Shown: positions 13,258-60,510 of the stretch, piece after piece
How positions within the stretch are numbered: position 1 is the first letter of the stretch
How the letters are laid out: every line of letters begins with the position of its first letter
Source: Cyanobacteria bacterium FACHB-DQ100
GTDB taxonomy: Bacteria; Cyanobacteriota; Cyanobacteriia; Leptolyngbyales; Leptolyngbyaceae
Reading direction: 5' to 3'
Length of the DNA stretch: 64,000 nucleotides
NCBI GenBank assembly: GCA_014695195.1
Contig: JACJNW010000041.1
Location: 62,001 to 126,000 of the forward strand
Notes under the pieces: model-generated
Seen by the model: only the letters and a program-made list of their open reading frames with translations
Database searches by the model: none
What the model was told of the DNA's origin: nothing
Program-made: the position numbers and the translations under genes

Positions 13258-13968
13258 TTAATAAGCTCCGTTGTTTCTAGGGAAGATGACGACACCGATC
13301 GTTTTGACGATAATCCACAAATCTAGCCAGAAATTGCGGAAGCTGGCGTAGTACACATCAATTCGGATGCGCTGAGGATAGGGAATATCATTGCGCCCTG
13401 AAACTTGCCATAAGCCTGTGATTCCAGGACGGATTGTGAGCACCGTTTCGATATGGATTCCGTATTTAGGGAGTTCTTCAACGACAAGCGGACGTGGGCC
13501 AACGACGCTCATATCGCCAACTAAAACATTCCAAAATTGGGGAAACTCATCTAAGCTAGTAATTCGCAAAAAGCGACCGATCCAGGTAATGCGGGGATCG
13601 TACTTTAGCTTGAAGTTCGTTTCAAACTCTTGGCGCATTTGAGGCGAGGTACTGATTAGATCGCTCAGCATCTCGTCGGCGTTTCGTACCATCGTTCTAA
13701 ATTTGATACAGCCAAATCGTTTGAAGTTTTTTCCCACTCGTTCTTGAACGTAGAAAACTGGGCCTGGAGAACTCAGGGCGATCAGTAACGCCAAAATCAA
13801 ATACACAGGAGAAAAAAGAACGAGAACGGAGAGCGAAAACGCGATATCGAAAAGGCGTTTGACAAGATCGCTATCAAGCACGTCCCAGCTTTTGAAAATC
13901 AAAGGTTTGCGACGCTTGAAGATCGACCGAATCCGCTTGCCGGAAATCAATTGGCTATCGGCAGTCAT
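13258..13968 (-). CDS. Polyprenyl-phosphate sugar-1-phosphate transferase (exopolysaccharide initiation)
   Basis: 236 residues from the chosen ATG (MTADSQL), which has AAGGAG five bases upstream; an in-frame extension of nine residues lacks this. One hydrophobic hairpin (residues about 45-70) anchors the protein in the membrane. The catalytic domain carries the family motifs KFRTMVRNADE, DEFPQFWNVLVGDMSVVGPRP and PGITGLWQVSGR. These enzymes move a sugar phosphate from UDP-sugar to undecaprenyl phosphate to start polysaccharide repeat synthesis. It lies near a GT4 transferase and gmd-fcl. It has no STAS domain, unlike its paralogue at 58328-59308. Confidence 0.9.
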   Translation of the reverse strand: MTADSQLISGKRIRSIFKRRKPLIFKSWDVLDSDLVKRLFDIAFSLSVLVLFSPVYLILALLIALSSPGPVFYVQERVGKNFKRFGCIKFRTMVRNADEMLSDLISTSPQMRQEFETNFKLKYDPRITWIGRFLRITSLDEFPQFWNVLVGDMSVVGPRPLVVEELPKYGIHIETVLTIRPGITGLWQVSGRNDIPYPQRIRIDVYYASFRNFWLDLWIIVKTIGVVIFPRNNGAY

Positions 13969-34090: not shown

Positions 34091-35740
34091 ATGAGGCGGG
34101 AATTGAACCCCAAGCTCAAGCTGTTAATCGTCGACGATGAGCCAGATAATCTCGACTTGCTTTACCGTACCTTCCGACGGAATTTCGAGGTGATTCGGGC
34201 AAAAAGCGCGATCGAGGCGCTCAAAGTTCTAGACCAGCAGGGCGAAGTCGCGATTATTATCTCAGATCAGCGAATGCCCGAAATGCTGGGGACTGAATTT
34301 CTCAGCCGTACCGCCGATCGCTTCCCCGATACGATCCGGATTGTACTGACAGGATATACCGATGTAGAGGATCTCGTTGATGCCATTAATTCGGGCAAAG
34401 TGTTCAAGTACATCACCAAGCCCTGGAAGCCTCAGCAACTTCAAGTCGTCGTCGAGCAAGCCGCAGAAACCTACCGCGTTCTCAAGCAGCGCACTGCCGA
34501 TCTGCGCCGCGCGCTCCGTCGAGAATCTTCGTTTAATGCCATCACTACCGCCATCCGCGAATCCCTTGACTATCAAAACATGCTGCAAACGATCGTCGAA
34601 ACGATCGGAATCACATTTGAAGCAACCTGCTGTATTTTGCATCCGGTTGAAGGCGATGTGTTTCGAGCGCACTCGGCAATGTACTGCACTGAGTATGTTG
34701 CCTATGACACCTGCCACGACGATCGCGGCTCCAAACTGGTGCAAGAGGTCTTTCGCGATCGAGCTGTACGGCTCGAAGACGAGAATTCGCCCCATCTCGT
34801 CTTACCGCTGGCTTATCAGCAGGAACTACTAGCGATTTTGTCGCTGCACCGAGCGATCGCAAAACCGATGTGGTCGAGCGAAGACATCGAACTGATTCAA
34901 GTCGTGGCAGAGCAAGCTGCCCTAGCGATTTCCCAAGCGCGGCTCTATCGCCGCACCCAACAGCAAGCTGAGCAAATTCGCGCCGAGTTAGCCGTTGCCC
35001 GTCAGATTCAAACGAACCTACTCCGGCAGACCTTACCAAGCTCAGACAAGCTAAAAGTGCAAGCCTGTTGCCACCCTGCCCGCGAGGTAGGAGGCGACTT
35101 TTTCGAGGTCTATCAGCATCCCCAAGGCGACCTGTGGTTAGCCGTGGGCGATGTTTCTGGCAAAGGCGTTCCTGCTGCTCTATTTATGGCAAGCGCCATT
35201 TCAGTGCTGCGGCGAGAACTGTCTCAGGAACCCCCCCCTGATCCTGATCAAGTGATGCGAAATTTGAATAGTATTCTTTCAGAAGATTTAATGGGAACAA
35301 ATTGTTTCATCACAATGGTTTTAGCCAGATACACGCCTGGTACTCATCAGCTTGTCTACGCCAATGCGGGACATATCTACCCCGTGGTTTGGTCAAAGCG
35401 GACGATCGCATCAAATTGCGATCCAACTTATCTCAAAGTGCGAGGTGTCCCTCTGGGAATTTTACCAGACTGGAAAGCCGCCGCAGGACAGTTAACGCTA
35501 ACGAGTGGCGAAGTGCTGTTGCTTACCAGTGACGGCATTACCGAAGCCACAATCCGATCGGACGATCCATCGAACCCCTCGATCGCGTCAGCCGGTGCAA
35601 TGCTGTGCCAAACCGGACTTTGGAAGTTACTCCAACAAGCCGGAGAGCGCCTGGATCTCAAGCAGCTTCTAGCCCAAGTTCAAGCTCACAACTCAATTCA
35701 AGAAGACGACCAAACGATTCTCTCCCTGGAGGTTTTGTGA
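34091..35740 (+). CDS. Response regulator with GAF and PP2C (SpoIIE/RsbU-type) phosphatase
   Basis: 549 residues. An N-terminal receiver (LLIVDDEPDN; phospho-Asp59 in IISDQRMP; Lys in YITKPWK) is followed by a GAF domain (about 150-290), a helical linker (EQIRAELAVARQIQTNLLRQTLP) and a PP2C domain with metal-binding AREVGGDFFEV and VGDVSGKGVPAALFM. Such proteins dephosphorylate STAS anti-anti-sigma proteins on a phosphorelay cue. An RsbW-like kinase starts three bases after its stop, so the opposing enzymes are co-made. No STAS gene lies next to them; the nearest ones are at 57-59 kb. Confidence 0.93.
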   Translation: MRRELNPKLKLLIVDDEPDNLDLLYRTFRRNFEVIRAKSAIEALKVLDQQGEVAIIISDQRMPEMLGTEFLSRTADRFPDTIRIVLTGYTDVEDLVDAINSGKVFKYITKPWKPQQLQVVVEQAAETYRVLKQRTADLRRALRRESSFNAITTAIRESLDYQNMLQTIVETIGITFEATCCILHPVEGDVFRAHSAMYCTEYVAYDTCHDDRGSKLVQEVFRDRAVRLEDENSPHLVLPLAYQQELLAILSLHRAIAKPMWSSEDIELIQVVAEQAALAISQARLYRRTQQQAEQIRAELAVARQIQTNLLRQTLPSSDKLKVQACCHPAREVGGDFFEVYQHPQGDLWLAVGDVSGKGVPAALFMASAISVLRRELSQEPPPDPDQVMRNLNSILSEDLMGTNCFITMVLARYTPGTHQLVYANAGHIYPVVWSKRTIASNCDPTYLKVRGVPLGILPDWKAAAGQLTLTSGEVLLLTSDGITEATIRSDDPSNPSIASAGAMLCQTGLWKLLQQAGERLDLKQLLAQVQAHNSIQEDDQTILSLEVL

Positions 35741-35742
35741 CC

Positions 35743-36189
35743 ATGCGAACTGAGCTTCATGTTCCAAGCGACTTAAAGTTTTTAGGGGTGGTTGAGCGGT
35801 GGCTGCTCGATACCTTGGAAGCTGAGATTGGCAATCAGGTAGATTGGTCGCGCCAGTCGAGTCGGCTTCGGTTGGCGCTCGTTGAAGCCTACTCGAACGT
35901 TGTGAGACACGCACACTACAACCGACCTGATCTGCCTGTGATTTTGCGTTTGGAGTTGAAGGGGCGGGATTTGGCGATCGAGATTTGGGATCACGGACAG
36001 GGGTATGACCTCTCGACTTATCTTGCACCCTCGCCCGAAGCGATGCAGGAGCATGGCTATGGCTGGCTGATTCTAAATCGGCTGATGGATCGAGTGGAAT
36101 ATCAGCTACAGGTGAATGGTCGCAACTGTTTGAGGCTGCAAGCAAATTTGATGGAAGACCATTCGACCCAGCACTCTCATTGTTCTTGA
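35743..36189 (+). CDS. RsbW-like anti-sigma / serine kinase (GHKL ATPase)
   Basis: 148 residues from ATG 35743, with GGAGG ten bases upstream; an in-frame GTG six bases earlier overlaps the previous stop (GTGA) and is possible. The N-box LVEAYSNVVRHAH has the Glu and Asn of the RsbW/SpoIIAB ATP site (Glu48, Asn52), and WDHGQGYDL is the G1 box. It should phosphorylate a STAS protein on serine and may hold a partner protein. It ends with NGRNCLRL, shared with its paralogue at 59330. Its 3' end overlaps the convergent MFS gene by 13 bases. Confidence 0.88.
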   Translation: MRTELHVPSDLKFLGVVERWLLDTLEAEIGNQVDWSRQSSRLRLALVEAYSNVVRHAHYNRPDLPVILRLELKGRDLAIEIWDHGQGYDLSTYLAPSPEAMQEHGYGWLILNRLMDRVEYQLQVNGRNCLRLQANLMEDHSTQHSHCS

Positions 36190-55457: not shown

Positions 55458-56183
55458 ATGACTACATCCGCACAAATGACCCGACTCACGATCGCCCTTG
55501 TCGCCGCGAGTCTGACCACGATCACGGCTTCAAAGTCCAACGCTGCGATCGTAACGATCGACAATTCTGGCTCCTGGATCAACGGCGCGAACACCTTAGA
55601 GAATCAAGGCTTTAATCTCATTCAAGTTCCGAATGGTAATGAAGGTTTAGGCAGCGACTTATCGACCCTGAGTTCACCCTTGGGCAACATTGAGTTCAGC
55701 CCCAGCGTTAACAAACGGCAAGTTGGCAACCCTGAGCCTGAAAAAAGATGGCGGACTTGGAGTAATAACTATCAAGGCGAAGTGTATTTTACAAATGGCG
55801 CACTGACGCTTGACCTCAAATTGCCGAACCTCGTTGCATTCGACTTCTATGCTCAACCGGACACGTTCTTCCTTGAGCCACAGTTCCAAAGACCCTACAG
55901 GATTTCCGCGATCGCTCAAAGTGGCGAAACTTCTGATGTGCTGAGTCAACTGGTCAACGGCAACAGCGGTGCCCAGTATTTTGGCTTCTATTCAGACGAT
56001 CCGCTTGATCCGATTCAGTCGATTCAGATTACCTCAGAGCAGGGATCAGGCGGATTCGCGATCGGTCAACTCCGTGGCGCGAGCGCTACCGCTACCGTCC
56101 CCACTCCCTTACTTTTACCGGGAATCATCGGACTCGGCTTAGGGTTATGGCGAAAGGCGCGGAGCCAGAATCAGCAGAATTAA
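55458..56183 (+). CDS. Exported protein with PTPA-type CTERM sorting tail
   Basis: 241 residues; ATG with GGAG ten bases upstream. A signal peptide (ends SKSNAA, about residue 30) and a predicted beta-rich body (about 35-210) are followed by the tail VPTPLLLPGIIGLGLGLWRKAR: a VPTP motif, one hydrophobic helix and a basic end. This is the PEP-CTERM variant called PTPA-CTERM, common in Leptolyngbya-like genomes. It marks proteins sorted by an exosortase and often linked with exopolysaccharide. The body has no recognised function. Confidence 0.87.
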   Translation: MTTSAQMTRLTIALVAASLTTITASKSNAAIVTIDNSGSWINGANTLENQGFNLIQVPNGNEGLGSDLSTLSSPLGNIEFSPSVNKRQVGNPEPEKRWRTWSNNYQGEVYFTNGALTLDLKLPNLVAFDFYAQPDTFFLEPQFQRPYRISAIAQSGETSDVLSQLVNGNSGAQYFGFYSDDPLDPIQSIQITSEQGSGGFAIGQLRGASATATVPTPLLLPGIIGLGLGLWRKARSQNQQN

Positions 56184-56270
56184 GCGATCAACCGCAACGG
56201 CTCAGTAACTTCAGGGTCAGTCTGGGAACTCTGAGAAAGACGATTGCACCACGGTTGCCTTTCTCCTTGT

Positions 56271-57449
56271 ATGCTCCCAGTCCTGATTATTGAAGACGAT
56301 CGATTAATGCGTAAGCTGCTGAAAAAACTGCTTCAGCCGGAAGGGTTTGAAGTGGTTGAAGCCACTACCGGAGAAGAAGGATTAGCCCTGATTTCAGCCG
56401 TTCGCCCTGCTTTGATCCTCTGTGACTGGCGCTTACCGGGAATTGATGGACTGTCTATTTGTCGCACGTTGAAGTCAAGACCAGAATGGGCAGACATCTA
56501 CTTCATTTTGCTAACTGCTCATAGTACCCCTGAATCCCACGTCAAAGCGCTCGATAGTGGAGCCGATGATTTTCTCGCCAAGCCAATTCAGCTTAAAGAA
56601 CTCAGTGCTAGACTTCGAGCAGGTTTAAGAGTCTATCGAGCCTTTCAGGAGCAGCGTAGACTCGCTCAAGAATTATCGCTTCAGCAACAACAACTAGAAT
56701 CAGAAATTGCAGAGGCAGCCGAATATGTCCGATCGCTGCTCCCCGCTCCAATGGATGAACGAGTGATCGCACGATCACAGTTTCTTCCTTCTCGACAGTT
56801 AGGTGGCGATTGTTTCGACTATCACTGGCTAGATTCTGACTTTCTCGCCATGTACTTGCTGGATGTGTCTGGACATGGGTTAGGTGCTGCTTTAGTCTCT
56901 GTTTCGATTCAAAACATTCTCCGCGCTCAGATTCTTCCTGGAATTAATTTTTATCAGCCTGGACTGGTGCTAACTGCGCTGAATGAAGCGTTTGCATTAG
57001 AGCAACAAACAAACTGGTTGACCGAAACCTCCAGCGATCGCTACTTTACAATTTGGTATGGAGTTTACAGCTATTCCAAGCGCCTCTTGATGTATTCTTG
57101 CGCTGGACATCCTCCTGCTGTGGTGTTATCGGGTTGCTCTCCAAATCATCGGATCGATCGCCTTCGGACTCCCGGAACACCGATCGGGATGTTTCCAGAC
57201 GCAAAATACAAAACTCACTTTTTCAAAGTTGAGCCAGAGAGTACACTTTATTTGTTTAGCGATGGCATCTATGAAGTCCGGCAACCAGACGGAGCAATGT
57301 GGACTTTAAATGAATTTATTGATTTACTCGATCGCTGCCACCATTCTGAAGACTTAGATAACCCCAAGAAAATCATTCAAGCCGTGAGATGCTTGAATCA
57401 AAATCACGACTTTGAGGATGATTGTTCTCTTTTGCAAATTAAGCTTTGA
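56271..57449 (+). CDS. Response-regulator PP2C phosphatase (RsbU/SpoIIE-type)
   Basis: 392 residues from ATG 56271 (MLPVLIIEDD); the frame opens nine codons earlier with TTG. Receiver domain with phospho-Asp52 in LCDWRLPG and Lys in FLAKPIQLKE, then a coiled linker (about 125-165), then PP2C with RQLGGDCFDYHW, LDVSGHGLGAAL, CAGHPPAV and LFSDGIYEV. It should remove phosphate from STAS-domain serine residues when its receiver is activated. It is the first of four genes up to 59.8 kb that look like one partner-switching circuit. Distinct from the GAF-containing phosphatase at 34.1 kb. Confidence 0.93.
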   Translation: MLPVLIIEDDRLMRKLLKKLLQPEGFEVVEATTGEEGLALISAVRPALILCDWRLPGIDGLSICRTLKSRPEWADIYFILLTAHSTPESHVKALDSGADDFLAKPIQLKELSARLRAGLRVYRAFQEQRRLAQELSLQQQQLESEIAEAAEYVRSLLPAPMDERVIARSQFLPSRQLGGDCFDYHWLDSDFLAMYLLDVSGHGLGAALVSVSIQNILRAQILPGINFYQPGLVLTALNEAFALEQQTNWLTETSSDRYFTIWYGVYSYSKRLLMYSCAGHPPAVVLSGCSPNHRIDRLRTPGTPIGMFPDAKYKTHFFKVEPESTLYLFSDGIYEVRQPDGAMWTLNEFIDLLDRCHHSEDLDNPKKIIQAVRCLNQNHDFEDDCSLLQIKL

Positions 57450-57525
57450 TAGCTTAGTAAAGCAAGAATTTTATTGATCCAGACTATTGCACAAGCGATG
57501 ATGCACCGGGAAAATTATTCAAAAA

Positions 57526-57852
57526 TTATTCAGCTGTATGCTTCTGCTGATAGAACTCGGATTGACTAGAGAAAATGGGGAAAAACTGAATCACATCTGC
57601 AAGTTCTAGCAGCATTCTAATTTCCTGCTTGACTGCACAGAGCGACAGCCGACCATGCGCCGCTCTTACGGCTTTTAACGCACTAATTAACGCACCCAAA
57701 CCAGAACTATCCATAAATGCAGCTTGCTCAAAATCGATTAAAACGTCACTCGTTCCGGCTGCAATCAAATCAAGAATCTCTTGTCTAAACTGCTTGGCTT
57801 GAGAGTGACCTAGAATGCCACAAACTTTAATCACTTTCACAGGATGATACAT
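57526..57852 (-). CDS. STAS-domain anti-anti-sigma-like protein
   Basis: 108 residues, a single STAS domain. The phospho-acceptor loop is FMDSSGLGALISALKAV with Ser49 or Ser50 as the likely site, by analogy with SpoIIAA (DSSGLG). It would be dephosphorylated by the PP2C protein encoded upstream and phosphorylated by an RsbW-like kinase. It is on the opposite strand to its neighbours. Its sequence closely resembles the STAS domain fused to the sugar transferase at 58328 (both DSS..GAL..CLKA). The 475-base gap to that gene (57853-58327) shows no convincing gene. Confidence 0.9.
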   Translation of the reverse strand: MYHPVKVIKVCGILGHSQAKQFRQEILDLIAAGTSDVLIDFEQAAFMDSSGLGALISALKAVRAAHGRLSLCAVKQEIRMLLELADVIQFFPIFSSQSEFYQQKHTAE

Positions 57853-58327
57853 CGCGGCTCACCTAAGTAATCGATAAATGGATAAAGCGCTGCTTAATTA
57901 AATCAGCACCCTACACCATAAAGCCCTGATAATCCCAAAATTTCTTTACGTGAAATTTCAGATCTTTCGTGCTTGTGTCTAATTAGAAGCGGGGGAATTC
58001 CGTATTTTCAACCTGTCTGAATTGGCGAATTGATCATTTTCGTATTCGTTAATTTCTATCAATATCATTGCTAAAGATTGACTATTTTGTTGTATTTCGC
58101 TGTGAACAGGGGAATTTTTTAGAAGGACATCAGGGCATTGATCGTAAGCCAATTATCGCGGAGCATTCGGTTTACCATGACGATCGAATTGAGCAAAAGC
58201 AGAATATTACCGATCGCAGCGACATTACCACTCTGCTATCAGTTAAGGATTGATTTAGACAGAGCCTAAGCGATTTCGTCTAAACAGCTTTCAAACTTCA
58301 TTGCCTAATGTTTTATTTGAGGTCAAC

Positions 58328-59308
58328 ATGATCCAGCATTCTCCGACCCACTTCTCAACAGTACAAACGGAAGAAGCTTGCATAATGAAATTGCCTCCTC
58401 TGTTAACTGTCGTCGAAGCGGTTGCATTCCGCGCTCTTTGTCGAGAATTAATCGAGGCAGAGCCTGCACCCAAAAAAATCGTTCTTGACTTCGCTGAAAC
58501 AATGTTTATCGATAGTAGTGCGATCGGTGCATTAGTGAGGTGTCTCAAAGCTTGCCAAGCTCATCAAATTGAGCTAGTTTTGCACAGTGTAAAGCCTGAG
58601 ATTCTATCAGTTTTGGTGCTTGCAGACCTTGATCGACATTTCACCATTGAGGCTAAAGCTGTCGAATTAGAACCCCCTGCTAGCCCCACGATCGCGCCAA
58701 CGCATCCCTCGATTCAGTCGAGGACAAAGCGTGCGCTCGACATTGTTGGCGCGATCGTGGGGCTAGGAATTACGGCGCTAGTGTTTGTTCCGATTGCGAT
58801 CGCGATTAAACTGGATAGTCCAGGTTCAATTTTGTTTTCTCAAACGCGCTGTGGTCATTTAGGTAGACGCTTTCAGGTGTGGAAGTTTCGATCGATGGTT
58901 AGCGATGCAGAACAATTAAAAGCTCAGGTCGAAAATCAAAATGAAGGGGCATTCTTTAAAAATGCAAATGATCCACGGATTACTAGAGTCGGACGATTTC
59001 TTCGTAAGACTAGCCTGGATGAACTGCCACAGTTTTGGAATGTTTTACACGGCGAAATGAGTTTAGTCGGAACTCGTCCACCCTTACCCGAAGAAGTGGA
59101 ACACTATGAAATTCCGAGCTGGCAACGCCTAGATGTGAAGCCCGGAATTACCGGAGAGTGGCAAGTGCATGGTCGATCGAAGATTCGCAATTTTGAGGAA
59201 GTGATTGAACTCGATTTGCGCTATCAACAACGCTGGAGTTTGAAGTATGATCTACAGCTATTGCTCAAAACGATCGTTGTATTGTTGAACAAAGATAGCG
59301 CATTTTAA
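58328..59308 (+). CDS. STAS domain fused to polysaccharide-initiating sugar transferase
   Basis: 326 residues from ATG 58328, which has GAGG six bases upstream; a TTG nine codons earlier is open but weak. Residues 1-112 are a STAS domain with intact phospho-loop [16 protein letters not shown] (Ser63/Ser64). Residues 113-130 are a Pro-rich linker. A membrane segment (138-160) leads to the catalytic domain with [33 protein letters not shown] and [13 protein letters not shown], all typical of undecaprenyl-phosphate sugar phosphotransferases. A STAS switch joined to this enzyme suggests the first step of exopolysaccharide synthesis is gated by serine phosphorylation. The RsbW-like kinase gene begins 21 bases downstream. 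Confidence 0.9.
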
Positions 59309-59329
59309 CGACTTTAGGAGCGATCGGAG

Positions 59330-59788
59330 ATGAGCGGTCTTACAGAAATAGAAGATGTGATTCACTTCGATCGATTGGTCGTTCAGACAGATTTAAGAGC
59401 GATCGCCCAGATCTTAACGTGGTTTGAAGCATTTCAGAAAGCTCCTGTCTCTCAGGCAGTTTGGTTACAGGGGCAAATTGCTTTAGTCGAAGCCTTTACC
59501 AACGCAGTTCGCCACGCTCATGAACTGTTACCAAGACAGACTCCGATCACTCTAGAAGCAGGAATTTGTGTTGATCGACTGGAAATTAGAGTTTGGGATC
59601 AAGGAGCGCCGTTTAATTTAGCACAGTTAATCGATCGAGTTGAGCAAGACTATCCTGAGCCGCTAGAACATGAGGCACATTGGGGTGCAGCTTTGTTTAA
59701 GAAGCTCCAAGACCAGCATCGCTGGAACATTGAATATCACTGTCTGAACGAAGGTCGCAATTGTTTACGCTTGGTCAAGTTTTGCTAG
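59330..59788 (+). CDS. RsbW-like serine kinase / anti-sigma-type GHKL protein
   Basis: 152 residues. The ATP site is recognisable: N-box ALVEAFTNAVRHAHE (Glu54, Asn58) and G1 box VWDQGAPFNL. The G2 region (HWGAALFKKLQD) is divergent but comparable with that of its paralogue at 35743. It would phosphorylate a STAS serine, most simply in the fused sugar transferase encoded just upstream or in the free STAS protein. It shares EGRNCLRL at its end with the 35743 protein. Confidence 0.88.
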   Translation: MSGLTEIEDVIHFDRLVVQTDLRAIAQILTWFEAFQKAPVSQAVWLQGQIALVEAFTNAVRHAHELLPRQTPITLEAGICVDRLEIRVWDQGAPFNLAQLIDRVEQDYPEPLEHEAHWGAALFKKLQDQHRWNIEYHCLNEGRNCLRLVKFC

Positions 59789-59799
59789 CAGAATTCGGT

Positions 59800-60510
59800 T
59801 TAAAGCGCTTCTGGATCAATGCCGAGCGATCGTAGCCGTTCCGCCATTTGGTGCGCCCGTTGTTCTGCTTGCTCTGCCCGTTGGCGCTCTTGTGCTAATT
59901 GCTGCTCCGCCTGTTCTGCTCGTTGGCGCTCTTGATCAAGCAGTTGATTAATTTCAGCAAACGAGAAAAAGGAGATTCCGTCAGGTCGAAACAGGTGCAG
60001 TTCTGCACCTAATTCAAACCGGATTCCCAATCGAGGGCTAACCCAGCCCAACATCGATTCAATCCGATCGAGCATTCCATCTTCCGACCGTATCCATCCT
60101 TCTAATCGGATGCGATCAGGATCATAGACATAGTATTCCTCAACACCATAGCTGTGATAAAACAGCAGCTTTCGCTCCATTTCGCGTTGCGTGTTGCCCG
60201 GAGATAATACTTCAAAGACAACTTGAGGCGGAATGTTATTTTCTTTCCATTGTTGATAAGAGCCGCGATCGCCCTTTGGTCTACCAAACACAACCATTGC
60301 ATCAGGGGCGGTACTCAGCCTATTGTTGCCTTCAACCGGATACCACAATAAATCGCCTGCAACAAATACATCAGCATTATCTGCAAACAACCATTCTAGA
60401 TTCTGCTCAATCACTACAATCCAGCGAAATTGTTTGGTGTTGTCTGCCATTGGTTTGCCGTCAGTTTCCGGGTAAAACACATCGCTCTTGTTCGACTGCT
60501 GAGTCACCAT
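59800..60510 (-). CDS. Uma2-family (DUF820) endonuclease-like protein
   Basis: 236 residues. The PD-(D/E)xK-like core spans residues about 30-190, with APDAMVVFG and VVFEVLSPGNTQREMERK, typical of the greatly expanded cyanobacterial Uma2 family. Residues about 190-236 form a charged coiled coil with two copies of ERQRAEQAEQ. Nuclease activity has been proposed for the fold; the cellular role is unknown. Confidence 0.88.
   Translation of the reverse strand: MVTQQSNKSDVFYPETDGKPMADNTKQFRWIVVIEQNLEWLFADNADVFVAGDLLWYPVEGNNRLSTAPDAMVVFGRPKGDRGSYQQWKENNIPPQVVFEVLSPGNTQREMERKLLFYHSYGVEEYYVYDPDRIRLEGWIRSEDGMLDRIESMLGWVSPRLGIRFELGAELHLFRPDGISFFSFAEINQLLDQERQRAEQAEQQLAQERQRAEQAEQRAHQMAERLRSLGIDPEAL

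What the first reader, a model, noticed from the sequence alone, without database searches (positions are those of the whole stretch)
56271..59788. Partner-switch module whose output is a sugar transferase, not a sigma factor
Within 3.5 kb lie a receiver-PP2C phosphatase, a free STAS protein, a STAS domain fused to a polysaccharide-initiating phosphotransferase, and an RsbW-like kinase. The fused STAS keeps the phospho-acceptor loop (IDSSAIGAL), nearly the same as in the free STAS protein (MDSSGLGAL). The catalytic motifs of the transferase are intact. I infer that kinase and phosphatase set the phosphorylation state of the transferase and thereby gate the first step of exopolysaccharide synthesis. 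A STAS-less paralogue at 13258-13968 offers a built-in comparison.
Basis: partly seen in the sequence, partly recalled or inferred. Interest (0 to 1): 0.88.

Follow-up and report, generated by a model that had tools for sequence, protein, structure and literature searches.

The report
Switch module wired to sugar transferase
In many cyanobacteria the enzyme that starts building a slimy outer sugar coat carries a built-in on/off switch domain, and here it sits beside the kinase and phosphatase that normally flip such switches for gene regulators, so coat production could be turned on and off directly at its first step (predicted, not yet tested).

Summary
Between 56271 and 59788 lie a receiver-SpoIIE phosphatase, a free STAS protein (minus strand), a STAS-Bac_transf fusion and an RsbW-type kinase. 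The fusion is real: 148 of 291 sampled Cyanobacteriia genomes encode it. Across 133 distinct fusion loci the STAS half averages only 42% identity, yet the Ser equivalent to the SpoIIAA phospho-acceptor (Ser63) is kept in 131. A kinase with intact catalytic residues lies directly downstream in 31 of 133, across at least 11 families. Kinase, free STAS and phosphatase all cluster with the fusion in at least four family-level groups. No sigma-factor match lies on the window's contig. The best reading is a partner-switch module whose output is the polysaccharide-priming transferase. The fusion itself is not new: Anabaena All4160 is described as STAS plus glycosyltransferase, and Synechocystis XssP, the priming transferase of synechan, proves to be one (its paper does not mention STAS). 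New here are the linked module, its breadth and the conserved phospho-site. Phosphorylation, binding and the active state are inferred. Verdict: new variant of a known kind; interpretation partly supported.

The parts
56271..57449 (+). Receiver-SpoIIE (PP2C) phosphatase, RsbU-like; GGDCFD, DVSGHG, FSDGIYE and FEDDCS motifs intact, receiver Asp in LILCDWRLP
   Evidence: Pfam; motifs and orthologues in other modules
57526..57852 (-). Free single-domain STAS protein with phospho-acceptor loop FMDSSGLGAL, opposite strand between phosphatase and fusion
   Evidence: Pfam, NCBIfam ant_ant_sig above cut-off; free STAS in other modules
58328..59308 (+). STAS-Bac_transf fusion: polyprenyl-phosphate sugar-1-phosphate transferase with N-terminal STAS domain
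   Evidence: Pfam; open frame in 148 of 291 class genomes; AlphaFold model matching SpoIIAA/RsbV-type folds and PglC/WbaP
58355..58657 (+). STAS domain of the fusion (residues 10-110)
58514..58516 (+). Ser63 codon, equivalent to the SpoIIAA phospho-acceptor Ser; kept in 131 of 133 distinct fusions
58727..59287 (+). Bac_transf (monotopic phosphoglycosyl transferase) domain, residues 134-320
59018..59023 (+). Asp231-Glu232 catalytic pair (SLDE motif)
59330..59788 (+). RsbW/SpoIIAB-type HATPase_c_2 kinase, 21 nt after the fusion stop codon; Glu54, Asn58, Gly92 and Gly119 invariant in 30 of 30 linked kinases, Asp90 in 29

Best explanation
This is an RsbU-RsbV-RsbW-like partner-switch module whose effector is not a sigma factor but a membrane sugar-1-phosphate transferase that carries its own RsbV-like STAS domain. 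The kinase (59330-59788) binds the unphosphorylated fused STAS and phosphorylates Ser63. The receiver-PP2C (56271-57449), controlled through its receiver domain by an unidentified histidine kinase, removes the phosphate. The free STAS protein (57526-57852) is a second, competing substrate that sets how much kinase is left for the transferase. The state of the STAS domain (kinase-bound, free or phosphorylated) controls whether the transferase loads the first sugar phosphate onto polyprenyl phosphate, and so gates one extracellular polysaccharide. Shown here: the gene set, intact catalytic residues, wide conservation and linkage, and conservation of the phospho-site. Inferred: phosphorylation, binding, effect on activity, and identity of the polysaccharide. 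My guess, little better than even, is that the unphosphorylated, kinase-free form is the active one.
For: Domains. Fusion in 148/291 class genomes. Kinase directly downstream on the same strand in 31 of 133 distinct fusion loci, 11 or more families, mostly within 80 nt stop-to-stop. Kinase, free STAS and SpoIIE phosphatase together with the fusion in the window's genus, family f24, Nostocales f32 (incl. Nostoc sp. FACHB-280, Richelia sinica) and Laspinema. All fusion-linked kinases but one fall in one group of their tree. Among 58 relatives the 11 genomes with this kinase (E<1e-50) all carry the fusion: 9 have the two genes adjacent, the other 2 have them on separate contigs of fragmented assemblies. 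STAS halves average 42% identity while Ser63 is kept in 131/133, Asp62 in all, and Lys/Arg74, at a kinase-contact position of Ssr1600, in nearly all (PMC12329169). Kinase Glu54/Asn58 30/30. Phosphatase motifs intact. No sigma-factor match on contig C41. In one Nostocales genome two glycosyltransferases and a flippase lie just upstream of the module. XssP, 52% identical with a STAS domain, is required for synechan (PMC8205485).
Against: No biochemical data. About three quarters of fusions have no linked kinase although they keep Ser63, so any control there must work in trans or Ser63 is kept for another reason. The conserved contact Asp of Ssr1600 (D25) is mostly Thr/Ser in the fusions. Distance correlation ties the kinase to the STAS half no more than to the transferase half (partial rho 0.39 vs 0.38). 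In the icfG cluster the phosphatase acts on only one of two STAS proteins (PMC12329169), so the PP2C here may not act on the fusion. The window's module is not next to polysaccharide genes.
Confidence: 0.62

Rival explanations
1. Docking model: the fused STAS is the bound target, taking the place of the sigma factor. The kinase sequesters the transferase by holding its STAS domain, and the dephosphorylated free STAS protein releases it. Phosphorylation of Ser63 is minor or absent.
For: A separate free STAS with a canonical loop sits in the same module, as expected if it is the antagonist.
Against: Ser63 is almost invariant (131/133) in a domain that otherwise averages 42% identity, more than docking alone would need; about 19 of 31 linked loci show no free STAS within the stretch read.
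Confidence: 0.18
2. The kinase, phosphatase and free STAS control a sigma factor or another target encoded elsewhere; the fused STAS is a localisation or scaffold domain and the genes are only neighbours.
For: The genome has 14 Sigma70 region 2 matches; the cyanobacterial RsbW-type kinase Slr1861 binds SigC (PMC12329169).
Against: Kinase-fusion adjacency recurs in 11 or more families with short or overlapping junctions; the kinase group occurs only in genomes with the fusion among 58 relatives.
Confidence: 0.13
3. The fused STAS is a nucleotide- or lipid-sensing or dimerisation domain, analogous to the regulatory DUF of WbaP, and is not regulated by phosphorylation.
For: It occupies the place, N-terminal to the catalytic domain, that the nucleotide-sensing DUF has in large monoPGTs (PMC10942596); most fusions lack a linked kinase.
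Against: Does not explain the conserved DSS loop with Ser63 or the recurrent kinase and phosphatase.
Confidence: 0.07

Closest known systems
icfG cluster of Synechocystis PCC 6803 (Slr1861 kinase, IcfG phosphatase, Slr1856 and Slr1859 STAS proteins)
   Same: One RsbW-type kinase, one PP2C and two STAS substrates encoded together; the kinase phosphorylates both STAS proteins (PMC12329169, citing Shi 1999).
   Different: Neither STAS protein is described as fused to an enzyme; the cluster holds an isoamylase and the kinase also binds SigC. Here one of the two STAS domains is part of a sugar transferase.
HmpU-HmpV-HmpW of Nostoc punctiforme
   Same: Cyanobacterial partner switch affecting hormogonium motility, with the STAS protein HmpV as output rather than a known sigma factor (PMC8256260, PMC6495340).
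   Different: HmpV is a single domain with unknown target. The window holds a separate phosphatase-kinase pair at 34091-36189 that better fits the HmpU/HmpW arrangement.
XssP (Synechocystis PCC 6803) and All4160 (Anabaena PCC 7120)
   Same: XssP is 52% identical over the full length with STAS + Bac_transf and required for synechan (PMC8205485); All4160 is described as N-terminal STAS plus glycosyltransferase (PMC8256260) and HEP synthesis depends on it (PMC4390870).
   Different: No kinase or phosphatase of this type next to xssP; XssP has DSA in place of DSS; no control through STAS has been reported for either in the papers read.
EpsW-EpsZ of Myxococcus xanthus
   Same: Post-translational control of the priming phosphoglycosyl transferase by a signalling protein (PMC12802240).
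   Different: [quoted passage not shown] no STAS, RsbW kinase or PP2C.

Membership tests
Rsb/Spo partner-switching system | HATPase_c_2 (GHKL) serine kinase with conserved Glu, Asn and Gly residues | tested here: met
   Pfam 63 bits, cut-off 27.4; Glu54, Asn58, Gly92, Gly119 30/30, Asp90 29/30; B. subtilis RsbW is the only PDB sequence hit
Rsb/Spo partner-switching system | STAS antagonist with phospho-acceptor Ser after Asp | tested here: met
   Free STAS MDSSGLGAL; fusion Ser63 kept in 131/133
Rsb/Spo partner-switching system | SpoIIE-type PP2C phosphatase | tested here: met
   Pfam SpoIIE 1.2e-40, motifs intact
Rsb/Spo partner-switching system | Sigma factor as output | tested here: not met
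   No Sigma70_r2 match on the window's contig C41; 14 elsewhere in the genome. Action in trans cannot be excluded
Rsb/Spo partner-switching system | Kinase binds and phosphorylates the STAS partner | not testable with these tools
   Needs biochemistry
Monotopic phosphoglycosyl transferase (Bac_transf, PF02397) | Bac_transf domain with Asp-Glu catalytic pair | tested here: met
   221.6 bits; D231 in 134 and E232 in 133 of 135 fusion loci; fold match to PglC and WbaP
Large monoPGT (WbaP/WcaJ type) | Four-helix membrane bundle and CoA_binding_3 (DUF) domain N-terminal to the catalytic core | tested here: not met
   326 aa with STAS in their place; no PF13727 match; below the TIGR03025/03023/03022 cut-offs
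HmpUVW | Orthology to HmpU, HmpV, HmpW | tested here: inconclusive
   Hmp reference sequences were not compared; the kinase at 35743-36186 falls outside the module-kinase group

The most novel reading that the evidence does not exclude
Partner switching directly controls an enzyme of polysaccharide initiation throughout cyanobacteria: STAS-fused priming transferases, including XssP and All4160, are phospho-switched at the Ser63 position, by a linked kinase where present and by trans-acting RsbW-type kinases elsewhere, so carbon or light signals gate extracellular polysaccharide synthesis without transcription.
Probability: 0.35. Interest if true: 0.82.

Novelty: new variant of a known kind. 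Interest (0 to 1): 0.64.

Why it matters
Priming transferases draw on a scarce shared lipid carrier, and how their flux is controlled is largely open (PMC10942596, PMC12802240). HmpV-type cyanobacterial partner switches have had no known target. This family offers a concrete enzyme target found in about half of sampled Cyanobacteriia, including a member (XssP) in a genetically tractable model strain, so the question can be tested directly. It could also help explain how cyanobacteria set slime, sheath or bloom-forming polysaccharide.

Tried and rejected
Assembly or frameshift artefact: rejected, same open frame in 148 genomes. Coincident neighbours: rejected by recurrent linkage. Sigma factor nearby as hidden output: none on the contig. 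The 13258-13968 paralogue as comparator: weak, only 43% identical and RfbP type. Stronger STAS-kinase than transferase-kinase distance correlation: not found. Promoter/terminator scan 56150-59900: not above shuffles. Fusions outside Cyanobacteriota: no STAS in the non-cyanobacterial Bac_transf loci returned, but only the best 80 were kept, so absence is not shown. Literature: no held paper found that describes partner-switch control of a sugar transferase; Wang 2007 and O'Toole 2021 are not held, and Riley 2018 did not turn up. AlphaFold of a kinase-transferase read-through chain was considered and dropped, because coordinates and interface scores are not returned.

Full report
What is there. 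The four genes are confirmed. 56271-57449 (+) is a receiver-SpoIIE phosphatase; 57526-57852 (-) a free STAS protein; 58328-59308 (+) a STAS-Bac_transf fusion in a single frame; 59330-59788 (+) an HATPase_c_2 kinase that starts 21 nt after the fusion's stop codon. The window lies in a 5.5-Mb cyanobacterial genome (contig C41). That genome has 5 SpoIIE, about 6 strong HATPase_c_2 and 11 STAS matches, and 14 Sigma70 region 2 matches of which none is on C41, so the cluster is not expected by chance.

The fusion is a real and common cyanobacterial protein. With the STAS-plus-linker part as query, 35 of 58 relatives and 148 of 291 class members have it, with open frames of mostly 310-400 aa. The AlphaFold model (mean pLDDT 75.6, pTM 0.57) has an N-terminal STAS fold matching SpoIIAA/RsbV-type structures and a C-terminal domain matching PglC and WbaP. 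A sequence profile finds the same relatives in the PDB.

Selection on the switch site. In an alignment of 135 fusion loci (133 distinct), STAS halves average 42% identity and transferase halves 70%. Asp62 is invariant and Ser63, equivalent to the SpoIIAA phospho-acceptor (assignment of SpoIIAA Ser58 from established knowledge), is kept in 131 of 133. One of the two exceptions (L074) has also lost transferase motifs. Ser63 is kept whether or not a kinase gene is adjacent. Lys/Arg at position 74, corresponding to a kinase-contact residue of Ssr1600 (K70, PMC12329169; correspondence by offset from the DSS loop), is also conserved, while the contact Asp (D25) is mostly Thr/Ser.

Linkage. A same-strand HATPase_c_2 kinase gene lies directly downstream (under 600 nt) in 33 of 135 loci (31 of 133 distinct), in at least 11 family codes; 27 of the 33 are within 80 nt stop-to-stop or overlap. 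Kinase plus free STAS plus SpoIIE phosphatase occur with the fusion in the window's genus, in f24, in Nostocales f32 (with Richelia sinica FACHB-800 and Nostoc sp. FACHB-280 among the named loci) and in Laspinema palackyanum. On the fusion tree the linked state needs 7 changes (shuffled mean about 28), at least 4 forced by well supported branches. Fusion-linked kinases, except one divergent copy (L240), form one group apart from the genome's other kinases, though support is moderate (84) and the tree is a quick one. Among 58 relatives, kinases of this group (E<1e-50) occur in 11 genomes, all with the fusion; in 9 the genes are adjacent and in 2 they lie on separate contigs of fragmented assemblies. 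Kinase Glu54, Asn58, Gly92 and Gly119 are invariant in 30 of 30 and Asp90 in 29; phosphatase motifs are intact. Distance matrices of kinase and fusion correlate, but no more with the STAS half than with the transferase half, so this is evidence for co-inheritance, not for a STAS-specific contact.

What the transferase does. A plasmid search found that XssP of Synechocystis PCC 6803 (pSYSM) is a member: 52% identical over the full length, Pfam STAS 37.9 bits and Bac_transf 225 bits (the gene was matched to xssP by its place in the cluster between the NACHT protein XssQ and a glycosyltransferase). Maeda et al. (PMC8205485) call XssP the priming glycosyltransferase of synechan; deletion abolished bloom formation and suppressed the polysaccharide. 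The word STAS does not occur in the main text. All4160 of Anabaena is described as a glycosyltransferase with an N-terminal STAS domain (PMC8256260, citing Wang 2007) and as needed for heterocyst envelope polysaccharide (PMC4390870). In one Nostocales genome the linked module follows two glycosyltransferases and a flippase. So the enzyme role is supported for the family; the polymer made in the window's organism is unknown.

Mechanism. Closest logic: the icfG cluster, where one RsbW-type kinase phosphorylates two STAS proteins and the phosphatase acts on one of them (PMC12329169). Here one of the two STAS domains is part of the transferase. I favour direct phospho-control of the transferase through Ser63 (0.62), then a docking model in which the free STAS is the switched partner (0.18), then unrelated targets (0.13) and a non-phospho sensory role (0.07). 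No step of phosphorylation, binding or activity change is shown. Precedents that priming transferases are regulated after translation exist: EpsW on EpsZ, and CapM activated by phosphorylation (PMC12802240, PMC10942596).

Novelty. The domain fusion is known from annotation and one review sentence. I found no held paper linking it to a partner switch, but Wang 2007 and O'Toole 2021 are not held and Riley 2018 could not be read, so prior mention cannot be excluded. Rated a new variant of a known kind.

Noticed in passing
34091-36189: Second phosphatase-kinase pair (receiver-GAF-SpoIIE plus HATPase_c_2). The adjacent arrangement resembles hmpU/hmpW of Nostoc and Leptolyngbya (locus tags in PMC10581220); orthology not tested.
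   Followed up: partly
L290:9995-10948 (Synechocystis pSYSM): XssP, the synechan priming transferase, has an N-terminal STAS domain not mentioned in its published description; loop is LDSAA instead of DSSG.
   Followed up: yes
L063:5481-7502, L072:5227-7386, L091:4825-7092, L098:5023-7155: Longer fusions of about 670-760 aa. In L063 and L072 an extra N-terminal region that looks like a two-part glycosyltransferase precedes STAS + Bac_transf (domain call by eye, no profile run); these four sit together in one fork of the tree.
   Followed up: partly
L074:5261-7156: Degenerate long fusion that has lost both the STAS Ser and the transferase motifs, as if switch and enzyme decay together.
   Followed up: no
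L086:7506-8189: Module STAS gene with two STAS stretches in tandem (Nostoc sp. FACHB-280), both with DSAG loops.
   Followed up: no
L240 (G129:C135): Module with two kinase genes on opposite strands next to the fusion, plus phosphatase and free STAS.
   Followed up: no
55458-56183: Predicted secreted protein whose C-terminus (PTPLLLPGIIGLGLGLWRKARS) looks like a PEP/PTPA-CTERM sorting signal; judged by eye.
   Followed up: no
G000:C41:38476-39102 and G000:C16:64121-64747 (outside the window): STAS-less paralogues 62% and 60% identical to the transferase half, better comparators than 13258-13968.
   Followed up: partly
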